A stretch of 20,043 nt of DNA, taken from a virus. Of this stretch, positions 2,389 through 20,020 are shown in pieces. Under the pieces are notes generated by a model, which was not told the origin of the DNA, did not search any database, and saw nothing but the letters and a program-made list of their open reading frames with translations. The stretch lies in IMG/VR virus record IMGVR_UViG_3300017770_000245, positions 1 through 20,043 of that record; one strand, given 5' to 3'. The position numbers and the translations under genes are program-made. The stretch's first letter is position 1, and each line of letters opens with the position of its first letter.

Positions 2389-3039
2389 ATGTTTGGAAGT
2401 AATGGTAACATCGATACATTAAAAAGTACAATCGCCAAAAAGGGCGGAATAGCCAGGTCAAATAGATTTAATGTAATCTTTACACCTCCTACACAATCTC
2501 TTTTAAATTTAAATCCAGAAGTATTAGTTGGTTCTTTACTTTCTGGTAATACTCCTAGTGTCAAGAATTTAATTAATGACCCTAGGGATATAGCTTTGTT
2601 ATGTGATTCTGTGAATTTCCCAAGTAGAACTATTTCTACAAGTGATGTTGCACTTGACCGACAGGTTAATCAGTTTCCATATACTATTATTGATGGCGAA
2701 GTTACAATGAGCTTTGTTTTAACCAATGATTACTATATGAAGACAATGTTTGATGGTTGGCAATCAGGTGTAATCGATGTAGATACTTTTACTGTGGGTT
2801 ATAAAAACGATTATTCAACTGATGTAATAATTCAGCAATTGGATAATAATAATAAGCCAGTGTATGGCGTTAAATTAGAAAAAGCTTTTCCGACAACTGT
2901 AAACCAAATCGACCTATCTCAGGATAGTGGAGAATATGCTAAGTTATCGGTTACTTTTTCATATGATAAATATGTTGTAGAAGGTCCGTTAAGTTCCACA
3001 GCCTCTGTGCTTGGTTCTGTTGCAGACCTACTTGGATAA
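2389..3039 (+). CDS. 54: Baseplate tail-tube initiator gp54-like
   Basis: The protein has 216 residues (T4 gp54 is 320). It has the beta-rich tail-tube fold pattern: RFNVIFTPP near the N-terminus, CDSVNFPSRTISTSDV in the centre, and a C-terminal strand series VNQIDLSQDSGEYAKLSVTFSYDKY. In T4, gp54 sits on top of gp48 and primes polymerisation of the tail tube. AGGAG at 2378-2382 is six bases ahead of the ATG, and the gene begins two bases after the preceding stop. The main alternative is another tail-tube paralogue. The position before gp26/gp51 and the tape measure supports gp54. Confidence 0.72.
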   Translation: MFGSNGNIDTLKSTIAKKGGIARSNRFNVIFTPPTQSLLNLNPEVLVGSLLSGNTPSVKNLINDPRDIALLCDSVNFPSRTISTSDVALDRQVNQFPYTIIDGEVTMSFVLTNDYYMKTMFDGWQSGVIDVDTFTVGYKNDYSTDVIIQQLDNNNKPVYGVKLEKAFPTTVNQIDLSQDSGEYAKLSVTFSYDKYVVEGPLSSTASVLGSVADLLG

Positions 3040-3056
3040 TATAATAGGAGAAAATT

Positions 3057-3788
3057 ATGGCTTTGCCAGTAGTGAATGCTTCGAAATATACTACGGTTAT
3101 ACCTAGTACTGGAGAAGAAATTGAATTTAGACCTTTCCTTGTGAAAGAAGAAAAGGTCCTCATGGTTGCTTTAGAATCTAAAGATAATAAACTAATTATG
3201 AGAAGCTTAAAGGATGTGTTATCAGCCTGTACATTTGATACAGTAGTAACTGATAACCTAACGAGTTTTGACCTTGAATACTTGTTTTTACAATTAAGGT
3301 CAAAAGCTGTAGGAGAAACAGCAGATATTTCTCTAAAATGTCGTAATGATGATTGTGATGATGTTGGTAAACATAGTATACCATTGGAAAAAATCACAAT
3401 GGACATTCCTGAAAAGGACGATAAAATTGTTATGATGACTGATGATGTTGGTATTACTTTTAAATACCCATCAGTTAAACAATTAGAAAGTCTTGGTACT
3501 GAGGATTTAGATAGCCTAACCCCAGAACAAAAGATGGAATCGACAATGGGATTAATTATGGTATCAATTGATAATATTTTTGATGCCGATAATGTATATC
3601 CTGCTGATAGTGAAACAGAACAATCACTAACAGGATTTATAGATGGATTAAATGCATCACAGTTTGCAAGTATTACAGAGTGGTTCCAGGGAATGCCGGC
3701 ACTATCTCACACAGTTGAATGGAAATGTAATAAATGCGATAATGATAATAAGGTAGAGTTAAGAGGCCTTCAGAATTTTTTTACTTAG
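3057..3788 (+). CDS. 26: Baseplate hub assembly protein gp26 (T4_baseplate family)
   Basis: A 243-residue protein of the gp26 family in marine T4-like phages. It opens MALPVVNASKYTTVIPSTGEE and contains PFLVKEEKVLM. Four cysteines (C95, C100, C224, C227) form CxxxxC and CxxC pairs that look like a zinc site. T4 gp26 is needed for hub assembly. AGGAG (3046-3050) is six bases ahead of the ATG. The last codons are CAG AAT TTT TTT ACT TAG. The seven-T run there is an in-frame slippery heptamer, and a -1 shift would bypass the stop and add the gp51 sequence, giving a product of about 306 residues. Confidence 0.82.
   Translation: MALPVVNASKYTTVIPSTGEEIEFRPFLVKEEKVLMVALESKDNKLIMRSLKDVLSACTFDTVVTDNLTSFDLEYLFLQLRSKAVGETADISLKCRNDDCDDVGKHSIPLEKITMDIPEKDDKIVMMTDDVGITFKYPSVKQLESLGTEDLDSLTPEQKMESTMGLIMVSIDNIFDADNVYPADSETEQSLTGFIDGLNASQFASITEWFQGMPALSHTVEWKCNKCDNDNKVELRGLQNFFT
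3761..3782 (+). promoter_or_regulatory. Predicted -1 ribosomal frameshift site joining gp26 to gp51
   Basis: The run T3776-T3782 reads T TTT TTT in the gp26 frame, a canonical -1 slippery heptamer. A Shine-Dalgarno-like AAGAGG (3761-3766) lies nine bases upstream. That resembles the stimulator of E. coli dnaX frameshifting, which sits about ten bases from its slip site. After a -1 slip the ribosome reads TAC TTA GGC CTT, which encodes the conserved start of gp51 (YLGLSHDTL). The arrangement is seen directly; use of the site is inference. Confidence 0.6.
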
Positions 3789-3976
3789 GCCTTTCGCATG
3801 ATACACTTGTGAACTATTACAAAGTGAATTTTGCAATGATGCAACATCACAATTATAGTTTAACTGAATTAGAGAATATGCTACCATGGAAAAGGGAAAT
3901 ATACGTAACGCTATTACAGCAGTATATTAAAGAAGAGAACGAAAAACAAAAGGCACAGAATAAAAGGTATAAATGA
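3782..3976 (+). CDS. 51: Baseplate hub assembly catalyst gp51, apparently made as a gp26-51 fusion
   Basis: This frame encodes FFYLGLSHDTLVNYYKVNF (its first Phe codons lie in the T run), then MMQHHNYSLTELENMLPWKR and a charged tail. This is recognisable as gp51 of marine T4-like phages. The frame is open only from 3752 and has no ATG before 3836. An ATG 3836 start would delete the conserved front part, and the GTG at 3809 has no ribosome site. The coordinates given are the 64 codons plus stop read after a -1 slip in gp26. The stop TGA overlaps the next ATG (ATGA). T4 gp51 acts in hub assembly and is not part of the finished baseplate. Confidence 0.72.
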   Translation, partial: YLGLSHDTLVNYYKVNFAMMQHHNYSLTELENMLPWKREIYVTLLQQYIKEENEKQKAQNKRYK

Positions 3977-4299
3977 TGGAAGAAGAAATTAAAAACGCAG
4001 GATATCATCCCGCAGACACCAACGGAGACGGAAAGGTGACCAAAAGAGAACAGGATATGTATCTCGAATTTAAACGTAAAGAGCTTGAAGATGCTGATGC
4101 AATGAGAGATGCGCAAAGACAAATGGCTTGGTATTCACTATATGGAATGCTTCTTTACCCAGTATTAGTAATTGGCTCTAATGTAGTCGGTTATGAAAAG
4201 GCTGCTGATATTCTTGGCGATATGGCAGGAGTATATTTTATTGCTGTTGCTGGTATTGTTGCTGCATTCTTTGGTGCACAAGCAATGGGTAAGAAATAA
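3973..4299 (+). CDS. EF-hand membrane protein of the tail module
   Basis: A 108-residue protein with one textbook EF-hand calcium loop, D15-T-N17-G-D19-G-K-V-T-K-R-E26. A charged helix follows (about 27-50), then two hydrophobic segments (about 51-68 and 86-104). I recall similar proteins beside gp51 in marine T4-like phages, without an assigned function. It could help the tail or tape measure meet the inner membrane, or use seawater calcium as a cue, but this is speculation. The start is ATG 3973, overlapping the gp51 stop. The next codon, ATG 3976, is equally possible, with AAAAGG at 3962-3967. It is coupled to the following gene by TAATG. Confidence 0.8.
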   Translation: MMEEEIKNAGYHPADTNGDGKVTKREQDMYLEFKRKELEDADAMRDAQRQMAWYSLYGMLLYPVLVIGSNVVGYEKAADILGDMAGVYFIAVAGIVAAFFGAQAMGKK

Positions 4300-4425: not shown

Positions 4426-6162
4426 ATGGCAGAAGACACCACGAATAAGAACATAAAGGCCCTTTTGGAAAAGACAGAAGGTAGTACAAAACGCTCAGCT
4501 AAAAGAGAAGAAACTCTACTTGAAGCTGTTAAGCTTGGAAATAAGATTGAAGACTTAAATAGTCGTGGTGAATCTAGGAGAGCAGATGCTCTTCAAGGAA
4601 CAATGGATGCAGTCCTTGCAACCCTAGAAAATAGCAATACATCTAAAGCTTTGGATAATAGATTATCCGAAATGGTTAGTCTAAACGACCAAGCTAATAA
4701 CATTCTAGAATCACAGAAGAATGCTATTGAAGGTGATGAAACAGTTAACTCATTAAAGAGATTAACCGAAGAATTATCAGGTCAAAAAGATTTAATTGAA
4801 TTACAGACTAAAGCACAAACTGATGGTAAAAAGGCTTTAAACAAATTGTCTATGACTACCGAAGCTGGTGACCCACTTCTTGATGAATTAAAATCTTCAT
4901 TTACTAGTAGTCAAGATGCATTGGAAGCTGCTCTTGAAACCGGTGACCAACAACAAATCGATTTAGCTCAAGCACAATTAGAAGCTGTTTTAAAAGGTAT
5001 ACTAACCGAAGAAGAAAGACGAGAAGCTCTAAAGAAACAAGAAGAGGCTAATTCTTTATTGTCTAATATGGCTGATAAGATTGAAAGTGGTGGAGGTAAA
5101 GTTGCAAAAACTGCTGGCTTCCTAGCTGGTATTGCAGGTATTGCCACACTATTCTTTTCACCAGAAACATTTGGTGCTATTGTAAGAAAGGCTATTGATA
5201 CTGTTGGTGCAATCGTTGATACAATCGATAAATTTATTAATGGCGATATGGAAGGAATGAGGAAAACTATTGATGAAAACTTTACATCGTTTTCTGTTAT
5301 TCTAGGAAGTCTTGGATTAATGATATTACCTAAAGTTTTAAGAGCTATAAGATTCTTAAAGAATGGATTTATGGCATTTAGAACATTCATGATATCAGAC
5401 TTTGTTGCTAACATGATGGCAAATCTAAAATCAATGATGGCATCAGTTGGTGGTGCATTCATGAAAGTATTCAGAGGTTTAGTTACCCTGACCAAAGTAT
5501 TTAGAGTATTCATGATGACCACATTTATACCTAGTATGACGGCTGCATTTAGTGGTATGATGGCTGCAATGGTTCCAATTATCGCGGCAATGGCTCCAAT
5601 ATTAGTACCAATCCTAGCTATTATGGCATTAGTTGGTGGTTTATACCTTGGATTTAAAGCGTTACAGGATTCATTAGGACCAGGCGCAAGTATTATGGAC
5701 ACTCTAAAAGTTGCAATGTTATATTTCGTTGACTTCTTAGCAATGATTGTTAACGGCATTACCTTTATACCTAGAAAGATGATAAGTTTCTTAGGTAAGA
5801 GAGCTGCTAAGTGGATATTAGGAGATGATTTCGACACATCAGCATTGGATGCTATAGGTGAGGGCCTTGATACAGGAAGAGGTAAAAGAGCAGCTGAAGA
5901 AATTAGATTGAAAAATGAAGAAGCAGCTATGCAAAAAGAGCAAGAAGAGCTTCGACAAAAAGACCAAGAGAATCTAACTGGTGCAGATATTCCAGATATA
6001 TCTACAGAAAATGCATTAGCTCAAGTAGAGGTTAAACAGAATCCAGTTGTAGTTTCAAATCAACAAAGTAGTAACGTAAATAACTCATCAAGTGTAACAT
6101 CAAATATTATATCAGGTAGACCTTTAAGAACTTCCGGCCTACAATTATCATTCTCAAGATAA
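4426..6162 (+). CDS. 29: Tail tape measure / baseplate hub protein, gp29-like
   Basis: The protein has 578 residues, close to T4 gp29 (590), the tail-length determinant. The first 220 residues are Glu/Lys/Gln-rich and predicted helical or coiled coil. Hydrophobic, Met/Ala-rich segments follow (about 226-245, 285-310, 375-412 and 425-450), a composition typical of tape-measure proteins. The C-terminus is Asn/Ser-rich. Direct identity to gp29 is not obvious by eye; the call rests on length, composition and position after gp26/gp51. AAGGA (4413-4417) is eight bases upstream of the ATG. The stop runs into an A tract and a hairpin terminator. A long antisense frame inside it is not a gene. Confidence 0.7.
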   Translation: MAEDTTNKNIKALLEKTEGSTKRSAKREETLLEAVKLGNKIEDLNSRGESRRADALQGTMDAVLATLENSNTSKALDNRLSEMVSLNDQANNILESQKNAIEGDETVNSLKRLTEELSGQKDLIELQTKAQTDGKKALNKLSMTTEAGDPLLDELKSSFTSSQDALEAALETGDQQQIDLAQAQLEAVLKGILTEEERREALKKQEEANSLLSNMADKIESGGGKVAKTAGFLAGIAGIATLFFSPETFGAIVRKAIDTVGAIVDTIDKFINGDMEGMRKTIDENFTSFSVILGSLGLMILPKVLRAIRFLKNGFMAFRTFMISDFVANMMANLKSMMASVGGAFMKVFRGLVTLTKVFRVFMMTTFIPSMTAAFSGMMAAMVPIIAAMAPILVPILAIMALVGGLYLGFKALQDSLGPGASIMDTLKVAMLYFVDFLAMIVNGITFIPRKMISFLGKRAAKWILGDDFDTSALDAIGEGLDTGRGKRAAEEIRLKNEEAAMQKEQEELRQKDQENLTGADIPDISTENALAQVEVKQNPVVVSNQQSSNVNNSSSVTSNIISGRPLRTSGLQLSFSR

Positions 6163-14321: not shown

Positions 14322-14624
14322 TTATAAGGATATAATATCTAGGTTATTCATCACATTTAGGTTATTAGCAACGGCAATTGTGACCCATGTATTAGGTATG
14401 ATTATATGTTCTGGTTCATGAGTATGCAGTATAAGACTGCCCCATATTAATTTAAAAAGTATTAATCTATCTAAATGAGGGTCTTTTCCTACAATAGGAT
14501 TTAGTTCGTATATATTTGGATGCTTTAATCCTCGATTAGTAGTCCATACATCGAGTGCATTAATGGCCCAAAAATAGTATACGTCTTTTTTATAATCTCT
14601 ATGTGTAAATTGTAATCTGTTCAG
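14322..14624 (-). CDS. DUF5658-like small membrane protein, start uncertain
   Basis: The reliable part reads YYFWAINALDVWTTNRGLKH, then YELNPIVGKDPHLDRLILFK and LIWGSLIL. This is the pattern of DUF5658 membrane proteins: an alcohol/Asp-rich first helix followed by ELNP. Function is unknown. There is no ATG near the end of the cyclase gene. A CTG at 14624 has AAAGG five bases upstream and would give 100 residues, overlapping the cyclase stop by 26 bases. The ATG inside the cyclase gene (residue MGFECC) has no ribosome site. Two or three membrane segments are likely. It ends the curli-like/FecR/cyclase run. Confidence 0.6.
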   Translation of the reverse strand: MNRLQFTHRDYKKDVYYFWAINALDVWTTNRGLKHPNIYELNPIVGKDPHLDRLILFKLIWGSLILHTHEPEHIIIPNTWVTIAVANNLNVMNNLDIISL

Positions 14625-16431
14625 ATTTACCTTTGACTGTAATTGTATCGACTTCAGTGAAGCTTCGTCCTTTACACTCTTCAGCAGTGAACTGTGATAA
14701 CAGCACTCGAACCCCATCGTAATTTCTTGTTTGGCCTTCGAGTCGAGCTGCCAAGTTGACGGCGTCTCCAATAACGGAATAGTCAAATCGAGATTCTGAC
14801 CCCATGTTTCCAACGATGCAGTCGCCGGTGTTGATACCAATACCAACGTCAATACGAGGTAAACCTTTTTCTTCCAATTCTGCAATAAGTACATCTGCTG
14901 CTTCCGTTATTTCATATGCTGTTTTTACAGCCATATCTGCATGATTATTAGATGGCAATGGAGCATTCCAAAAAGCCATTATACAATCACCCATATATTT
15001 GTCAACTGTTCCACCATTCTTTAATATTATTTTTGTCATGGTGTCTAAATAGTTATTTATAATTTCTACTAACCCCTCTGGGTCATCGTTATTTTTATAA
15101 TGTTCTGATATTGGAGTAAACCCTACGATGTCCATAAACAGAAACGACATCTCTTTTCTCTCTCCACCTAATCGTAATAACGATGGGTCTTTCTGTAATA
15201 ACATCACTTGCCTTGGGTCTAAATAAGTTTCAAATTGTTTCTTAATTTGTTGTCGTAATACAAATTGTTTATAGAAATTATTAAAGCCCGCTGAAGTGAA
15301 GGAAAGTATATATAATATTAGATGGAACGTAAGGTCGAGGAGTATGTAAGATTTATTCCAAATATAAAGTACAGAAAAGATTGTCCCTCCGCAGAGAACC
15401 AGAAAGGTTAGCAAAGAAACCCAAATCGGTAAACGATATACCACAAGAATCAGAACAAACACAAGAAGAGTTCCTACAAGAATTTCTAAAGGAGTTGCGT
15501 ATTGAGGCCGAGAAATCGGCTTATCAGACAGAATCGTCTGTAACGCTGAAGCTTGTAACTGATGAGGATATTTCAATCCGCCAGGAGTAGCAACTTGTTG
15601 AGATAAACCTCTGGCCGTTACTCCAACAATAACTGTCCTACCTTTAAAATCTTCATAATCATTTAAGTTATTTACATATTCTAATTCTTCAAATTTCGTA
15701 TTCCATTTTAACCAAATAGAACCATCACTATCTGTAGAGATATTAAATGGTCTTAATACGATACTTTCAATTCCGCTTTCATTTGATTTAATAGTATAAG
15801 ATTGCTTTTCGTTTAAAACACGAGTTGTTTCTAAAGCAAATGATGGATATAATTGTCCATTGACATTAGATATAAGTGGTATTCTTCTTGTAATACTATC
15901 AACTTCTGGCGCGCCGTTAGATAATCCATGTCCCCATGCACCTGCTTCTATCTCAGGTATATTAGTAACTAATCCTTTATATTGGTAAATGAAATCTAAA
16001 GGGTCTGATGTTCCAAAGGTTGCATATCCTACATAAGGTGCAGATTCGCTTCTACCATATTCATCAGCTGTTTGTGTTAGAATAATTCCATTGTCTTTTA
16101 CCCAACTGGCAAATACTTCATCTCCACCAAACCTATCTGCTTCTGGAAACATAATAGTAAACCCAATCATACCTGCATTTTTATTTCTTAAATCAGCTAT
16201 CATTTGAGCATAGTGATGTCGGGGCCAAGGGAATTGTCCTAATTCAGCTAAGGAATCCTCGCCTATATTAAGTAAAACTATTTCTTGTGATTTTTCTTCT
16301 GGAAGTGTTTTGATTAAAGCGTCGAATGTATTTAATCGTGTTTGTTCTAATAATGATGGGTCTATAATTCTCATTAAAATTAATAATGAAGCTAATGCAA
16401 AGGTTGACCATATTGAAGTAATATATTTCAT
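14599..16431 (-). CDS. CHASE2-domain class III adenylate cyclase
   Basis: A 610-residue membrane sensor. One N-terminal membrane helix (about 8-22) is followed by an extracytoplasmic CHASE2 domain (about 25-305; QFPWPRHHYAQMIADL near its start). Three membrane helices follow (about 316-333, 338-356, 361-378), then a cytoplasmic class III cyclase domain (about 425-608). Metal aspartates are D434 (FMDIVGFT) and D482 (KYMGDC). K478 is the adenine-specifying lysine, and the partner position carries S552 where D or T is usual. N559 and R563 (VNLAAR) are the transition-state residues. All catalytic residues are present, so it should make cAMP. The ATG overlaps the stop of the 26-residue gene upstream (ATGA). 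This is an unusual gene for a phage, and in bacteria it is often found near FecR-domain genes, as here. Confidence 0.9.
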   Translation of the reverse strand: MKYITSIWSTFALASLLILMRIIDPSLLEQTRLNTFDALIKTLPEEKSQEIVLLNIGEDSLAELGQFPWPRHHYAQMIADLRNKNAGMIGFTIMFPEADRFGGDEVFASWVKDNGIILTQTADEYGRSESAPYVGYATFGTSDPLDFIYQYKGLVTNIPEIEAGAWGHGLSNGAPEVDSITRRIPLISNVNGQLYPSFALETTRVLNEKQSYTIKSNESGIESIVLRPFNISTDSDGSIWLKWNTKFEELEYVNNLNDYEDFKGRTVIVGVTARGLSQQVATPGGLKYPHQLQASALQTILSDKPISRPQYATPLEILVGTLLVFVLILVVYRLPIWVSLLTFLVLCGGTIFSVLYIWNKSYILLDLTFHLILYILSFTSAGFNNFYKQFVLRQQIKKQFETYLDPRQVMLLQKDPSLLRLGGERKEMSFLFMDIVGFTPISEHYKNNDDPEGLVEIINNYLDTMTKIILKNGGTVDKYMGDCIMAFWNAPLPSNNHADMAVKTAYEITEAADVLIAELEEKGLPRIDVGIGINTGDCIVGNMGSESRFDYSVIGDAVNLAARLEGQTRNYDGVRVLLSQFTAEECKGRSFTEVDTITVKGKSEQITIYT

Positions 16432-16508
16432 ACGTATAAATCTATGTATAAACCCTTAGGAATACCCCAGCCGTATTTAAGACGAAGAAATCTTTGATAG
16501 GAATTCAT
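16428..16508 (-). CDS. Microprotein (26 aa) bridging curlin B and the cyclase
   Basis: The frame begins MNSYQRFLRLKYGWGIPKGL and ends with six more residues (YIDLYV). Its ATG overlaps the curlin-B stop as TAATG, and its TGA overlaps the cyclase ATG as ATGA. This exact double coupling is hard to explain unless it is translated. It is basic and aromatic, without a clear membrane helix. It may be a coupling peptide or a small partner of the cyclase. I do not recognise it. Confidence 0.55.
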   Translation of the reverse strand: MNSYQRFLRLKYGWGIPKGLYIDLYV

Positions 16509-17206
16509 TACTGACCCTGTTCTACTGTCACAGAACAACCGCCTACTGTAACACAATCAACTGCTAAGTTATATGTTTGTGTTGTACTTCCTAATTGTCT
16601 TAATGTCAAATCTGTTCCATATAATCCATCTAGAGTTATATTTGCAGTATGAGTTGCCCATGTACCTTTCTGTCTGAGAGTAACATCATTGTCAGAATTA
16701 TAGATTGTTAGATTTAGTTCTTTTGAACCTTGCCCTTGTTGTCTACCTGATATAATATTATCATTACCAGCTAGATGAAAGTCAAAGTTGTGTCCATCAG
16801 TTGACCCAGCATTTGTTTGATGCCATGTTAAAGAATTGTCATCTCCATATAAATCTAATTCCATATAATGACCACCGCCTTCAATATTATCATAGGTATA
16901 TGAACCATCCGATAACCAAGCAATTCCTTGGCCAAGCTTGAGTGTATTTCCAGAACCACTCATTTCGTCAAATGCAATTATATTCTCAGCACTTGTAAAA
17001 TTATATTGTACTATGTGAACATCTAGATTTGGGGCATTATTAATATATGAACCAGAATCTAACATTTTTATAGTATTATTATATCCTACTTGTTCTATTT
17101 CTAATTCAAAATTATTACCAGATTGTTCTAGAGATATTTGATTATCATCAGCAAAACAAACAAATGGTAATAATAACATTAGAGATATAAAGGCTATATC
17201 TTTCAT
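16508..17206 (-). CDS. Curlin-like secreted repeat protein B
   Basis: A 232-residue exported protein. The signal peptide covers residues 1-19 (LLLPFVCFA, then DDNQ). The mature part begins with a curlin-type unit (QISLEQSGNNFELEIEQVGY NN, residues 23-44) and then imprecise repeats with G-D/N-D-N and Q-x-G cores (GDDNSLTWHQ, GNDNIISGRQQGQG, VTLRQKG, LTLRQLG). The end has two cysteines (C218, C224) and a final VTVEQGQ. This resembles CsgA/CsgB, which form extracellular amyloid. The repeats are too irregular to assign one or the other. It is a paralogue of the gene at 18331-19071 and is coupled to an 18-residue frame upstream by TAATG. Confidence 0.72.
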   Translation of the reverse strand: MKDIAFISLMLLLPFVCFADDNQISLEQSGNNFELEIEQVGYNNTIKMLDSGSYINNAPNLDVHIVQYNFTSAENIIAFDEMSGSGNTLKLGQGIAWLSDGSYTYDNIEGGGHYMELDLYGDDNSLTWHQTNAGSTDGHNFDFHLAGNDNIISGRQQGQGSKELNLTIYNSDNDVTLRQKGTWATHTANITLDGLYGTDLTLRQLGSTTQTYNLAVDCVTVGGCSVTVEQGQ

Positions 17207-17262
17207 TATGCTACCCAGGGCCTAATCCAGTATTTGTAAAATATTTTTTTAAATTTCTTCAT
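17206..17262 (-). CDS. Microprotein (18 aa) after a late promoter
   Basis: The frame reads MKKFKKIFYKYWIRPWVA and its TAA overlaps the ATG of curlin B (TAATG). A TATAAATA late promoter (17268-17275) ends five bases before the ATG, so the transcript would be almost leaderless and this peptide would be the first thing translated. It is strongly basic and aromatic. It may be a leader peptide that delivers ribosomes to curlin B, or an active peptide. Confidence 0.5.
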   Translation of the reverse strand: MKKFKKIFYKYWIRPWVA

Positions 17263-17267
17263 AATAC

Positions 17268-17275
17268 TATTTATA
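17268..17275 (-). promoter_or_regulatory. T4-type late promoter for curlin B, cyclase and DUF5658 genes
   Basis: A perfect TATAAATA on the minus strand lies just past the FecR stop codon. It would place the curlin B, cyclase and DUF5658 genes under phage late control. Confidence 0.65.
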
Positions 17276-17276
17276 A

Positions 17277-18377
17277 TTAATTTTGGTTAATCCTTACTAT
17301 GATGTCTTCTCCATCATTACCTGTTATTATTCCTTCCCAACCTGGTGTTATTGTTTCTAATGTAAATGAACCACCTGCTGCAAATGTTAATTCTATTGCT
17401 CCATTTACATTACGATATAATACTAAATCGCCATCTCTTAAAAATACATTATATTGAGATTCATCGTTTAATCCTCTCATTGCACCTTTAATATCAAACT
17501 CTCCTAATGTATCAAATAGGTCAGATGAATCTACGATTGATAAAAAGTCTAATAAAAACTCTACATCTAATTCATCAACGTCTAATTCTGAGAACTCTTT
17601 TAACTCATCTTCTTCCAATGCGTCTTCTTCTAATTCTGTAAATTCTAAAAAGTCGATATCTAATAAACCTTGGTCTTCATTTTGTTCATCTTGTAATTCT
17701 TCTTGTATTCTATCTTTTACTTCTTGCGGTGGATTTACAATAAACATATTATCAATTAAAGCTGGTGTAATACCATTAATGATAGTAGTTGAAGTTGGTG
17801 GTGTGTCTACAGTATAAACCATTGTTGCAGCATAAGCTTCATCTAGTACAACTGTTCCTGAAGCATTTGAAACTTCTATAACTCCCGATGGATTACCTTT
17901 ATCATCTGGAAGTAATATCACCAATGAACGTCCAAGCTCATCGATTGTTGTTGTAAAATCTGTTCCTCTAACTGCTATTGTAGCTGTAGGTGTTGATATT
18001 GCTATATTCGCATTATTAACTAAACCCAATTTACCTGAAGCAAATCGTGCAGTTCCACTAACCATTCTCATTGACATTTTAGATAATGATGGGTTAGGGT
18101 CGTAATATATTTCGTCTATAAAAACTTTTGAATGTTCTTTTAATTGTAATTCAGCTTTATCTAAAAACTCAATTAACATACGACCTTTGGCTGTTTCAGC
18201 CTGGTCATATAATTCTATTTCTGTAGTTTGAATTTGTTCTTTATCGCGTAGAATTGCAGTGACGCCAGTGGATTCCCTGACATCTCCAATGGGACTAGCA
18301 CTTAAACTAGTCCCACCGATGATTAATAGACTAGCTGTCGTTACCGCTGTCTTTTTGAGTAATGGTAATAGTTGCAT
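17277..18377 (-). CDS. Exported FecR-domain protein with acidic region
   Basis: A 366-residue protein with an N-terminal signal peptide (about 1-28, KKTAVTTASLLIIGGTSLSA). A FecR domain follows (about 30-190) with IGDVRESTGVTAILRDKEQI, LQLKEHSKVFIDEI and the hallmark TPTATIAVRGTDF (129-141). Residues about 222-285 are very rich in Glu, Asp and Leu (FTELEEDALEEDELKEFSEL), followed by a small C-terminal beta domain. FecR domains outside iron regulation often sit in exported proteins and are found next to CHASE2 cyclases in bacteria. It lacks a membrane anchor for signalling to an anti-sigma system. The first 47 bases overlap the end of curlin A in another frame, and no alternative start exists, so the signal peptide is coded in the overlap. 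Confidence 0.85.
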   Translation of the reverse strand: MQLLPLLKKTAVTTASLLIIGGTSLSASPIGDVRESTGVTAILRDKEQIQTTEIELYDQAETAKGRMLIEFLDKAELQLKEHSKVFIDEIYYDPNPSLSKMSMRMVSGTARFASGKLGLVNNANIAISTPTATIAVRGTDFTTTIDELGRSLVILLPDDKGNPSGVIEVSNASGTVVLDEAYAATMVYTVDTPPTSTTIINGITPALIDNMFIVNPPQEVKDRIQEELQDEQNEDQGLLDIDFLEFTELEEDALEEDELKEFSELDVDELDVEFLLDFLSIVDSSDLFDTLGEFDIKGAMRGLNDESQYNVFLRDGDLVLYRNVNGAIELTFAAGGSFTLETITPGWEGIITGNDGEDIIVRINQN

Positions 18378-19071
18378 TGTCTGAAGTTACGTCTAATACG
18401 ATATTAGCATTTGGTGTTGCACATCCAGTTGTCTGTCCTGCACAAGTACCACTTATCTGATTAATATCAACATCTGCAGAATCGCCTACTAAAGTAAACT
18501 CTAGGTTTTGTGAACCATCATTCTGTAATGTGTTTATATTATTACTGTCTCCAGTAACTTCAAAATTCCAAACGTTATCGTCAGATTCAAAATCTATATC
18601 AAATACGTTTGAATTACCTATTAAAATTAAATCGGCATCTAATCTTTCTGCACTCGCTGCATAACCCTGGTCTATATCAAATGTGTTACTGTCTCCAGTT
18701 ACATCAAAATTATAGTCAGAATCATCTGCGCTACCGCTATATCCGATATTCCAATCAATTTCATTTGAATCACCTGTAAAATCAAGCTTATAGGTTGAAC
18801 TATCTGCTTTAACAGGACCAAATAAAATGTTTTGGTTACCAGCAAAATCTAAATCAAACTCTAAACTTGAACCGATAATACTCATTGCAGTAGAACCACT
18901 TGAAAAGTCGTCTCCTCCAATTTTGTTACCGAAACCAATTTGGTCGATGTACAATTCTAGTGTGTCACCAGATTGTGTGATTTTGATTTCATTATCATCA
19001 GTGGCTTGTGCAAAAACGAATCCTGTCGACACTAATAGCCCAGCTAGGACTATACTATATAGTTTATTCAT
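18331..19071 (-). CDS. Curlin-like secreted repeat protein A
   Basis: A 246-residue exported protein with a signal peptide (1-23, ending VFAQA, then TDDN). It begins EIKITQSGDTLELYIDQIGF (residues 28-47), matching the start of curlin B. It then has Asp-rich repeats around T/V-G-D-S-N (FTGDSNEIDWN, VTGDSNTFDIDQG, LIGNSNVFDIDF, VTGDSNNINTLQ, LVGDSADVDINQ), spaced roughly 22-30 residues. Near the end is a cysteine pair (C210, C217) and TITITQ. The repeated D-S-N could coordinate calcium or form ladder turns of a beta-solenoid. It is coupled to csgG by an 8-base overlap and is probably the substrate of that pore. Confidence 0.75.
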   Translation of the reverse strand: MNKLYSIVLAGLLVSTGFVFAQATDDNEIKITQSGDTLELYIDQIGFGNKIGGDDFSSGSTAMSIIGSSLEFDLDFAGNQNILFGPVKADSSTYKLDFTGDSNEIDWNIGYSGSADDSDYNFDVTGDSNTFDIDQGYAASAERLDADLILIGNSNVFDIDFESDDNVWNFEVTGDSNNINTLQNDGSQNLEFTLVGDSADVDINQISGTCAGQTTGCATPNANIVLDVTSDNATITITQKDSGNDS

Positions 19072-20020
19072 TTTCGTTATTTTCCTCTTTTATAGGATGT
19101 TTATCGTTTTTACCACCGACTTGGTGGGGGTGACGATGTCCATCCTCTATAACCCAAAGGCCTCTATCATGCCCTTGGTATATTAGTTCCAACACGGCAG
19201 CCTCAATAGCTGTTCGTGTCGCGTAAGTCACGGACTCATTATTTCCCACACCGTCCTCATATTCTACTAGAGTGGTACTATTATCGACGAATCGAAAAAT
19301 ATCACCACTTCCACCGTAACTAAGAATCGTCTTCTTAGCTTGGACATTCAATAATACTTCACCAGTCAGAACAGAAACTGCTCTAACCGAAACAGTGACG
19401 ACATCTTGTTGATATCGCTTACTTTTGCCTATACCTAATAATCGTGCGCCTCGACCACCAGTTTGTACATTAGTATCATAACCAATTATTCCACCTTCCA
19501 TTATCATACCAGCGAATAGAAGTGGATTCAATGCTTTCGCGCCTTCCGGGCCTGCGAAATCGTTTCTGGCACTCCTGATAATCTGTCTTTCTCTTACCAG
19601 ATTATCAATGCCTTGTCTTTCTACTACTCTAAACCAGCTTCCATCTCCTGCTGTTTTGAGAGCATCTATTAATAACTCAGTTCCACCTTGTGAAACTGCT
19701 GTTGAGAAGTCTGCTATACCTTCTCTTGATTTTCTTTGACCTGTTAAATCTTTAAATCCATATACAGCAACTACAGGTCTATCTTTTGCTGGAGGTAAAT
19801 CTAATAACTCGATGTATGAAGGTAATCTAATTGCTTCAGCTTCTTCAACACAAATATAAGAATGTCTTAATGTTTTTTCTAATCTTGATACTGTGTTAGG
19901 ACCAATATAAGGGTCATCAAATGTAATTTCTTTGCATTCCTCAGGTTTATCAGACCAAACAGGAGTTGCTGACTCATTTAAAAATCCTAATACTAATAAT
20001 AATGCTAAAGCTGCTTCCAT
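19064..20020 (-). CDS. csgG: CsgG-like curli secretion pore
   Basis: The protein has 318 residues (E. coli CsgG precursor 277) and clear homology through the core: VVAVYGFKDLTGQ, DFSTAVSQGGTELLIDALK, WFRVVERQGIDNLVRERQII, then GGIIGYDTNVQTGGRGAR and KKTILSYGGSGDIFRF, and finally GHDRGLW. E. coli CsgG is a nine-subunit outer-membrane lipoprotein channel for curlins. Differences: no lipobox cysteine after the hydrophobic N-terminus, an extra segment of about 50 residues before the core with C29 and C57, and a His-rich C-terminal tail (EDGHRHPHQ). The pore eyelet keeps Phe (F105) but has R/E and D where E. coli has Tyr and Asn. The promoter lies outside the window. Confidence 0.92.
   Translation of the reverse strand: MEAALALLLVLGFLNESATPVWSDKPEECKEITFDDPYIGPNTVSRLEKTLRHSYICVEEAEAIRLPSYIELLDLPPAKDRPVVAVYGFKDLTGQRKSREGIADFSTAVSQGGTELLIDALKTAGDGSWFRVVERQGIDNLVRERQIIRSARNDFAGPEGAKALNPLLFAGMIMEGGIIGYDTNVQTGGRGARLLGIGKSKRYQQDVVTVSVRAVSVLTGEVLLNVQAKKTILSYGGSGDIFRFVDNSTTLVEYEDGVGNNESVTYATRTAIEAAVLELIYQGHDRGLWVIEDGHRHPHQVGGKNDKHPIKEENNENE

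What the first reader, a model, noticed from the sequence alone, without database searches (positions are those of the whole stretch)
3761..3976. Predicted -1 frameshift makes a gp26-gp51 fusion upstream of the tape measure
gp51 has no start codon before its conserved region, and its frame is only open from 3752. In the gp26 frame the end reads A AAT TTT TTT ACT TAG, with the heptamer T TTT TTT at 3776-3782. A -1 slip gives ...NFF-YLGLSHDTL, restoring the conserved gp51 N-terminus exactly. AAGAGG nine bases upstream fits the known anti-SD stimulation of -1 frameshifting. Lambda and many other tailed phages make tail-assembly chaperones as a -1 frameshift pair (G/GT) directly before the tape measure. 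The same arrangement here suggests that T4 gp26 and gp51 descend from, or replace, that chaperone pair, with the long form made at low frequency.
Basis: partly seen in the sequence, partly recalled or inferred. Interest (0 to 1): 0.85.

Follow-up and report, generated by a model that had tools for sequence, protein, structure and literature searches.

The report
Frameshifted tail chaperone in T4-like phage
A marine T4-like phage appears to make a short and a long version of one tail-building chaperone by having the ribosome slip back one base on a run of T's, as phage lambda does; the signal is conserved in nearly every relative examined, and in phage T4 the two versions have become two separate genes, an arrangement already reported in 2022.

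Summary
gp51 lies in the -1 frame of gp26, lacks a usable start codon, and joins gp26 at T TTT TTT (3776-3782). Across 180 related records (144 distinct junctions: pelagiphages, cyanophages, KVP40-like, Rhizobium and Stenotrophomonas phages) gp51 is always in the -1 frame, and 179 carry the in-register six-T run. That run is the strongest synonymous-site constraint in the gene in two clades, and persists in GC-rich phages that otherwise use TTC. Cyanophages add a covarying hairpin 8 nt downstream; the window's own clade shows none.

T4 supplies the meaning: T4 gp26 is the short form and T4 gp51 the long form (same N-terminal family, PF12322, plus the C-terminal domain), as separate genes forming one clade next to frameshift-type KVP40 and 65.2. 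The predicted N-terminal fold resembles HK97 tail assembly chaperone.

So this is a lambda G/GT-type chaperone pair made by -1 ribosomal frameshifting. The idea is not new: Vladimirov, Gautam and Davidson (Virology 2022) identified the T4-like chaperone genes, including the short + long gene arrangement. Verdict: real, strongly supported, new member of a known kind; the frameshift product itself has not been observed.

The parts
3057..3788 (+). gp26-like short form (TAC-N), 243 aa, PF12322 T4_baseplate; ends ...LRGLQNFFT*
   Evidence: PF12322 E 3.3e-55; phrog_150 E 1.2e-56
3761..3766 (+). Shine-Dalgarno-like AAGAGG, 9 nt before the heptamer; possible stimulator, but also encodes the conserved R-G motif
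   Evidence: (codon at -6: excess synonymous identity 0.63, z 1.8); inconclusive
3776..3782 (+). slippery heptamer T TTT TTT (register NNT TTT TTN of gp26)
3786..3788 (+). stop codon TAG of the short form, 3 nt after the heptamer
   Evidence: same distance in 139 of 144 unique junctions
3788..3793 (+). GGCCTT, synonymously constrained GGC-CTY just 3' of the stop in the pelagiphage clade; role unknown
   Evidence: GGC in all 53 Gly cases listed; excess 0.99, z 3.2
3782..3976 (+). gp51 C-terminal extension in the -1 frame (64 aa after the slip, stop TGA 3974-3976), making a 306-aa long form (TAC-NC)
   Evidence: (phrog_634 E 1.2e-28)
2389..3039 (+). tail tube family gene (gp19/gp54-like) directly upstream: the tail tube then chaperone order
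   Evidence: phrog_45 tail tube E 1.5e-37
4426..6162 (+). 578-aa ORF, candidate tape measure by position, length and hydrophobic stretches only
   Evidence: no family; no match to T4 gp29; homologues in the same place in many loci

Best explanation
Gene '26' plus '51' is one tail assembly chaperone gene. Most ribosomes end at TAG 3786 and give a 243-aa short form (TAC-N). A minority slip back one base in tandem on T TTT TTT and continue in the -1 frame to give a 306-aa long form (TAC-NC) carrying the gp51 domain. By analogy with lambda G/GT, many short forms would coat the tape-measure protein and the rarer long form would recruit tail tube subunits. Shown here: the frame relation, the conserved and synonymously constrained heptamer, the lack of a gp51 start, homology of the fusion to intact T4-type gp51, and a TAC-like predicted fold. 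Inferred: that the slip occurs, its frequency, and the binding partners.
For: Frame and heptamer conserved in 179 of 180 split records. Heptamer codons have the greatest excess of synonymous identity of the gene in pelagiphages (69/69 TTT at the first Phe, codon before always ending in T) and in cyanophages (80/80 TTT). In GC-54% phage DLP_6 only one Phe codon is TTT against 13 TTC, and the slippery site has a TTT. No gp51 start in 124 of 144 junctions. Cyanophages have a hairpin starting 8 nt after the heptamer: 87% of cells paired, 6 of 9 pairs with changes on both sides, covariation 0.265 against 0.193 for shuffles (0/500) and at most 0.133 for slid versions. T4 gp51 and Aes012 gp51 are natural in-frame fusions: PF12322 at 4e-52 and 2e-45, phrog_150 matched nearly end to end including the gp51 part; Aes012 gp51 aligns with the predicted fusion over residues 24-295. 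T4 gp26 is the short form and its FF codons are TTC TTT, not slippery. Fold: the top three PDB matches are HK97 TAC and two related phage-type proteins.
Against: No protein or reporter data. No supported RNA structure in the window's own clade, although the window's own downstream fold is mildly better than shuffles (z -1.7). RNAalifold gave no consensus structure for either alignment. KVP40 and P10VF also have an ATG overlapping the gp26 stop, so coupled reinitiation could add to gp51 there, and Cygsa01 (L182) has TAATG and no heptamer. TAC similarity is modest (Z 6.5-8.5; Foldseek E not significant).
Confidence: 0.93

Rival explanations
1. gp51 is a separate small protein made by reinitiation after the gp26 stop, at a non-AUG or internal codon.
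For: KVP40 and P10VF have ATG overlapping the stop, and Cygsa01 has TAATG without the heptamer; GenBank annotates separate gp51 genes from internal starts in some phages.
Against: 124 of 144 unique junctions have no ATG/GTG/TTG through about codon 5 of gp51. It does not explain the synonymously frozen, in-register T6 or why T4-type gp51 is an N-terminal fusion.
Confidence: 0.03
2. The fusion is made by RNA polymerase slippage on the T run rather than by the ribosome.
For: The site is a homopolymer of 6-7 T in an AT-rich genome; six-T run conserved.
Against: The run is only 6 T plus C in 84 of 144 junctions, short for polymerase slippage (general knowledge). The base after T6 is mostly C in one clade and T in the other, as a ribosomal X XXY YYZ heptamer allows. 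The cyanophage hairpin sits at ribosomal spacing and covaries.
Confidence: 0.04
3. The T run is a sequencing or assembly error and the two frames are truly one ORF.
For: Homopolymers are error-prone (general knowledge).
Against: Identical T7 in four other metagenome contigs and the same split in isolate genomes such as P-SSM2, S-CAM1, KVP40, Mosig and Melnitz.
Confidence: 0.005

Closest known systems
Tail assembly chaperones of T4-like phages (Vladimirov, Gautam & Davidson, Virology 2022, 566:9-15; paper not held, known through PMC10885494 and PMC12846349)
   Same: Apparently the same genes. PRFect cites it for T4-like phages that carry one short gene and one long fusion gene instead of frameshifting; the Adele paper cites it for poly-T slippery signals in TAC-N genes of T4-like phages.
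   Different: I could not read the paper, so what it says about cyanophages and pelagiphages is unknown to me. The synonymous-constraint statistics, the covarying cyanophage hairpin and the pelagiphage GGCCTY element were worked out here and may or may not be new.
Phage lambda gpG/gpGT
   Same: One gene, short and long forms by -1 slip near the end of the short ORF, downstream of the tail tube gene; long form carries an extra C-terminal domain.
   Different: Heptamer T TTT TTY instead of lambda's G GGA AAG (from memory); stop only 3 nt after the heptamer; the short protein is about 240 aa and includes a Cys-containing second part; two small ORFs lie before the candidate tape measure.
T4 gp26 and gp51 (hub assembly chaperones)
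   Same: Both PF12322; gp26 equals the short form and gp51 the long form. gp51 is essential, absent from the virion and described as of unknown function in 2010 (PMC3004832).
   Different: Two separate genes, no slippery site, gp26 on the other strand.
Vandenendeviridae/Andersonviridae TAC with GTTTTT (PMC12846349)
   Same: -1 frameshift at a conserved T run at the end of TAC-N.
   Different: Different phage families and a shorter reported motif; homology of the proteins was not tested here.

Membership tests
Lambda-type tail assembly chaperone pair (TAC-N/TAC-NC) | Short ORF and an extension in the -1 frame joined at a slippery heptamer | tested here: met
Lambda-type tail assembly chaperone pair (TAC-N/TAC-NC) | Position between tail tube gene and tape measure gene | tested here: inconclusive
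   Tail tube family gene directly upstream; downstream 578-aa ORF not identified by sequence and two small ORFs intervene
Lambda-type tail assembly chaperone pair (TAC-N/TAC-NC) | TAC fold in the N-terminal domain | tested here: met
   AF2 pLDDT 92; the top three of 789 PDB chains include HK97 TAC 2ob9, Z 7.1 over 83 residues. Modest scores; Foldseek alone not significant
Lambda-type tail assembly chaperone pair (TAC-N/TAC-NC) | Long form made as a minority product; binds tape measure; absent from virion | not testable with these tools
   needs protein data
T4_baseplate family PF12322 (gp26/gp51) | Score above Pfam gathering cut-off | tested here: met
   187.6 bits against 24.5
Canonical bacterial -1 frameshift signal | X XXY YYZ heptamer in the 0-frame register | tested here: met
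Canonical bacterial -1 frameshift signal | Upstream Shine-Dalgarno-like stimulator | tested here: inconclusive
   AAGAGG present, but confounded by the conserved R/K/E-G codons
Canonical bacterial -1 frameshift signal | Downstream stem-loop 5-9 nt after the heptamer | tested here: inconclusive
   Supported in cyanophages; not supported in the window's clade; window fold z -1.7

The most novel reading that the evidence does not exclude
In T4-like phages the frameshifted chaperone gene is the ancestral state. T4 itself replaced frameshifting by gene duplication, giving separate short (gp26) and long (gp51) genes. The frameshift signal diverged by clade: a covarying hairpin in cyanophages, and a hairpin-less heptamer with a frozen GGCCTY element in pelagiphages.
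Probability: 0.5. Interest if true: 0.5.

Novelty: new member of a known kind. Interest (0 to 1): 0.42.

Why it matters
It gives pelagiphages and cyanophages a named tail assembly chaperone, marks a candidate tape measure (reported as not identified in pelagimyophages, PMC7029224), and corrects a gene pair that is annotated as two genes or loses gp51 altogether in public records. It also explains T4 gp26 and gp51, long described as hub assembly factors of unclear function, as the short and long forms of one chaperone.

Tried and rejected
(1) Consensus RNA structure by RNAalifold on cyanophage-type and pelagiphage alignments returned no pairs; the hairpin was then tested as a named structure. 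(2) A hairpin further downstream in pelagiphages looked good in single folds but showed little covariation above shuffles. (3) Pairing of upstream GAGG/AAGG with downstream CCTC/CCTT: read by eye from alignment A2, changes on one side are not matched on the other, so dropped. (4) Matching the 578-aa ORF to T4 gp29 failed. (5) Foldseek against PDB alone gave no significant match. (6) One gp26 with a +0 relation (L144) proved to be a contig with gp26 broken upstream while its junction keeps TTTTTTC. (7) A sequence-only search of solved structures found nothing. (8) The key 2022 paper is not held.

Full report
What is there. The gp26 frame (3057-3788) ends CAG AAT TTT TTT ACT TAG, with seven T's at 3776-3782. 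The -1 frame is open 3752-3976 and encodes the gp51 domain (phrog_634, E 1.2e-28) with no ATG/GTG/TTG before GTG 3809. The upstream gene is a tail tube family member (phrog_45) and gp26 is PF12322.

Is it more than chance? A scan of IMG/VR brought 80 relatives, including four contigs from other metagenomes at 100% identity with the same T7. With further scans and named phages, 180 records have gp26 and gp51 in neighbouring frames, always gp51 in -1. The set holds some duplicates and reduces to 144 unique junctions. All but one record (Pseudomonas phage Cygsa01, L182) have the in-register six T's: TTTTTTC 84, TTTTTTT 59, TTTTTTG 1; the stop lies 3 nt further in 139; 124 have no start codon for gp51 through about its fifth codon. 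A codon alignment shows that the heptamer codons have the largest excess of synonymous identity in the gene, independently in the pelagiphage group (69 sequences) and the cyanophage-type group (80). Choosing only representatives below 42% identity, ten sequences with GC 35-54% all keep the run, log10 P -8.2 under their own codon usage; in DLP_6 one Phe codon of the fusion is TTT beside 13 TTC, and the slippery site holds a TTT.

Other signal elements. In cyanophages (tested together with KVP40 and DLP_6) a stem CTCTTCCA/TGGAAGGG begins 8 nt after the heptamer: 87% of cells pair, six of nine pairs have changes on both sides, and covariation exceeds all 500 shuffles and all slid registers. RNAalifold did not find it by itself. 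In the window's clade no downstream structure is supported; instead GGC CTY directly after the stop is nearly frozen although GGC and CTC/CTT are minority codons elsewhere in the gene; I cannot explain it. The upstream AGAGG-like motif is present but coincides with a conserved R/K/E-G dipeptide that T4 gp26 also encodes, so its role is open.

What it is. T4 gp26 (208 aa) and gp51 (249 aa) both belong to PF12322 (9e-64 and 4e-52). gp51 alone continues through the gp51 domain: phrog_150 matches 13-280 of 282, against 14-235 for gp26. T4 gp51 is therefore the long form in one ORF and T4 gp26 the short form. In the tree, T4-type gp26 and gp51 form one clade (ultrafast bootstrap 97), and the frameshift-type Straboviridae KVP40 and 65.2 are the nearest group (support 71), which suggests that the two-gene state is derived by duplication; branches are long and the rooting is assumed. 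In Enterobacter phage EC-F2 the long and short genes are adjacent in tandem. The AlphaFold model of window gp26 (pLDDT 92) has its best PDB matches in 3fgx, HK97 tail assembly chaperone 2ob9 and YqbN 3klu, the first three of 789 chains; Z values are modest and Foldseek alone is not significant.

How it most likely works. Short form by normal termination, long form by tandem -1 slippage of two tRNA-Phe on T TTT TTT. By analogy with lambda (summarised in PMC5009743), the short form would coat the tape measure and the long form would bring in tube subunits. The slip, its frequency and the binding partners are inferred. Reinitiation is possible as a supplement where ATG overlaps the stop (KVP40, P10VF, Cygsa01) but cannot explain the frozen T run.

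What is known. Vladimirov, Gautam and Davidson (2022) identified the tail assembly chaperones of T4-like phages. I could not read it. PRFect reports from it that some T4-like phages carry a short gene and a long fusion gene instead of frameshifting, and the Adele paper cites it for poly-T slippery sites in TAC-N genes of T4-like phages. The finding is therefore a well-supported new member of a known kind. The two held papers on pelagimyophages and Melnitz that I checked do not mention it.

Noticed in passing
window 14599-20020 (- strand): Curli-type cluster in the phage contig: CsgG (PF03783, E 8e-51), two repeat proteins of curlin/CsgA type (one with a weak Curlin_rpt match), FecR (PF04773), and a CHASE2-adenylate/guanylate cyclase (PF05226, PF00211). 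CsgG/CsgF in pelagimyophages is published (PMC7029224), which names CsgA/CsgB as missing; the curlin-like repeats and the cyclase could be new.
   Followed up: partly
window 3788-3793 and homologous sites: GGC-CTY directly after the short-form stop is frozen at synonymous sites in pelagiphages without a structure that explains it.
   Followed up: partly
L182 (Pseudomonas phage Cygsa01) 1809: Only split locus without the heptamer; gp51 starts with ATG in TAATG overlapping the gp26 stop, a possible switch from frameshifting to coupled reinitiation.
   Followed up: partly
window 3973-4299: 108-aa ORF with an EF-hand-like DTNGDGKVTKRE followed by likely transmembrane segments, between gp51 and the candidate tape measure; no Pfam or PHROG match. 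Mosig and Melnitz have small ORFs in the same place.
   Followed up: no
public records L003, L006 and others: Several cyanophage records annotate no gp51 at all (S-CAM1, ACG-2014h), or start it at an internal codon (Mosig, Melnitz, P-TIM40), because the frameshift is not recognised.
   Followed up: no
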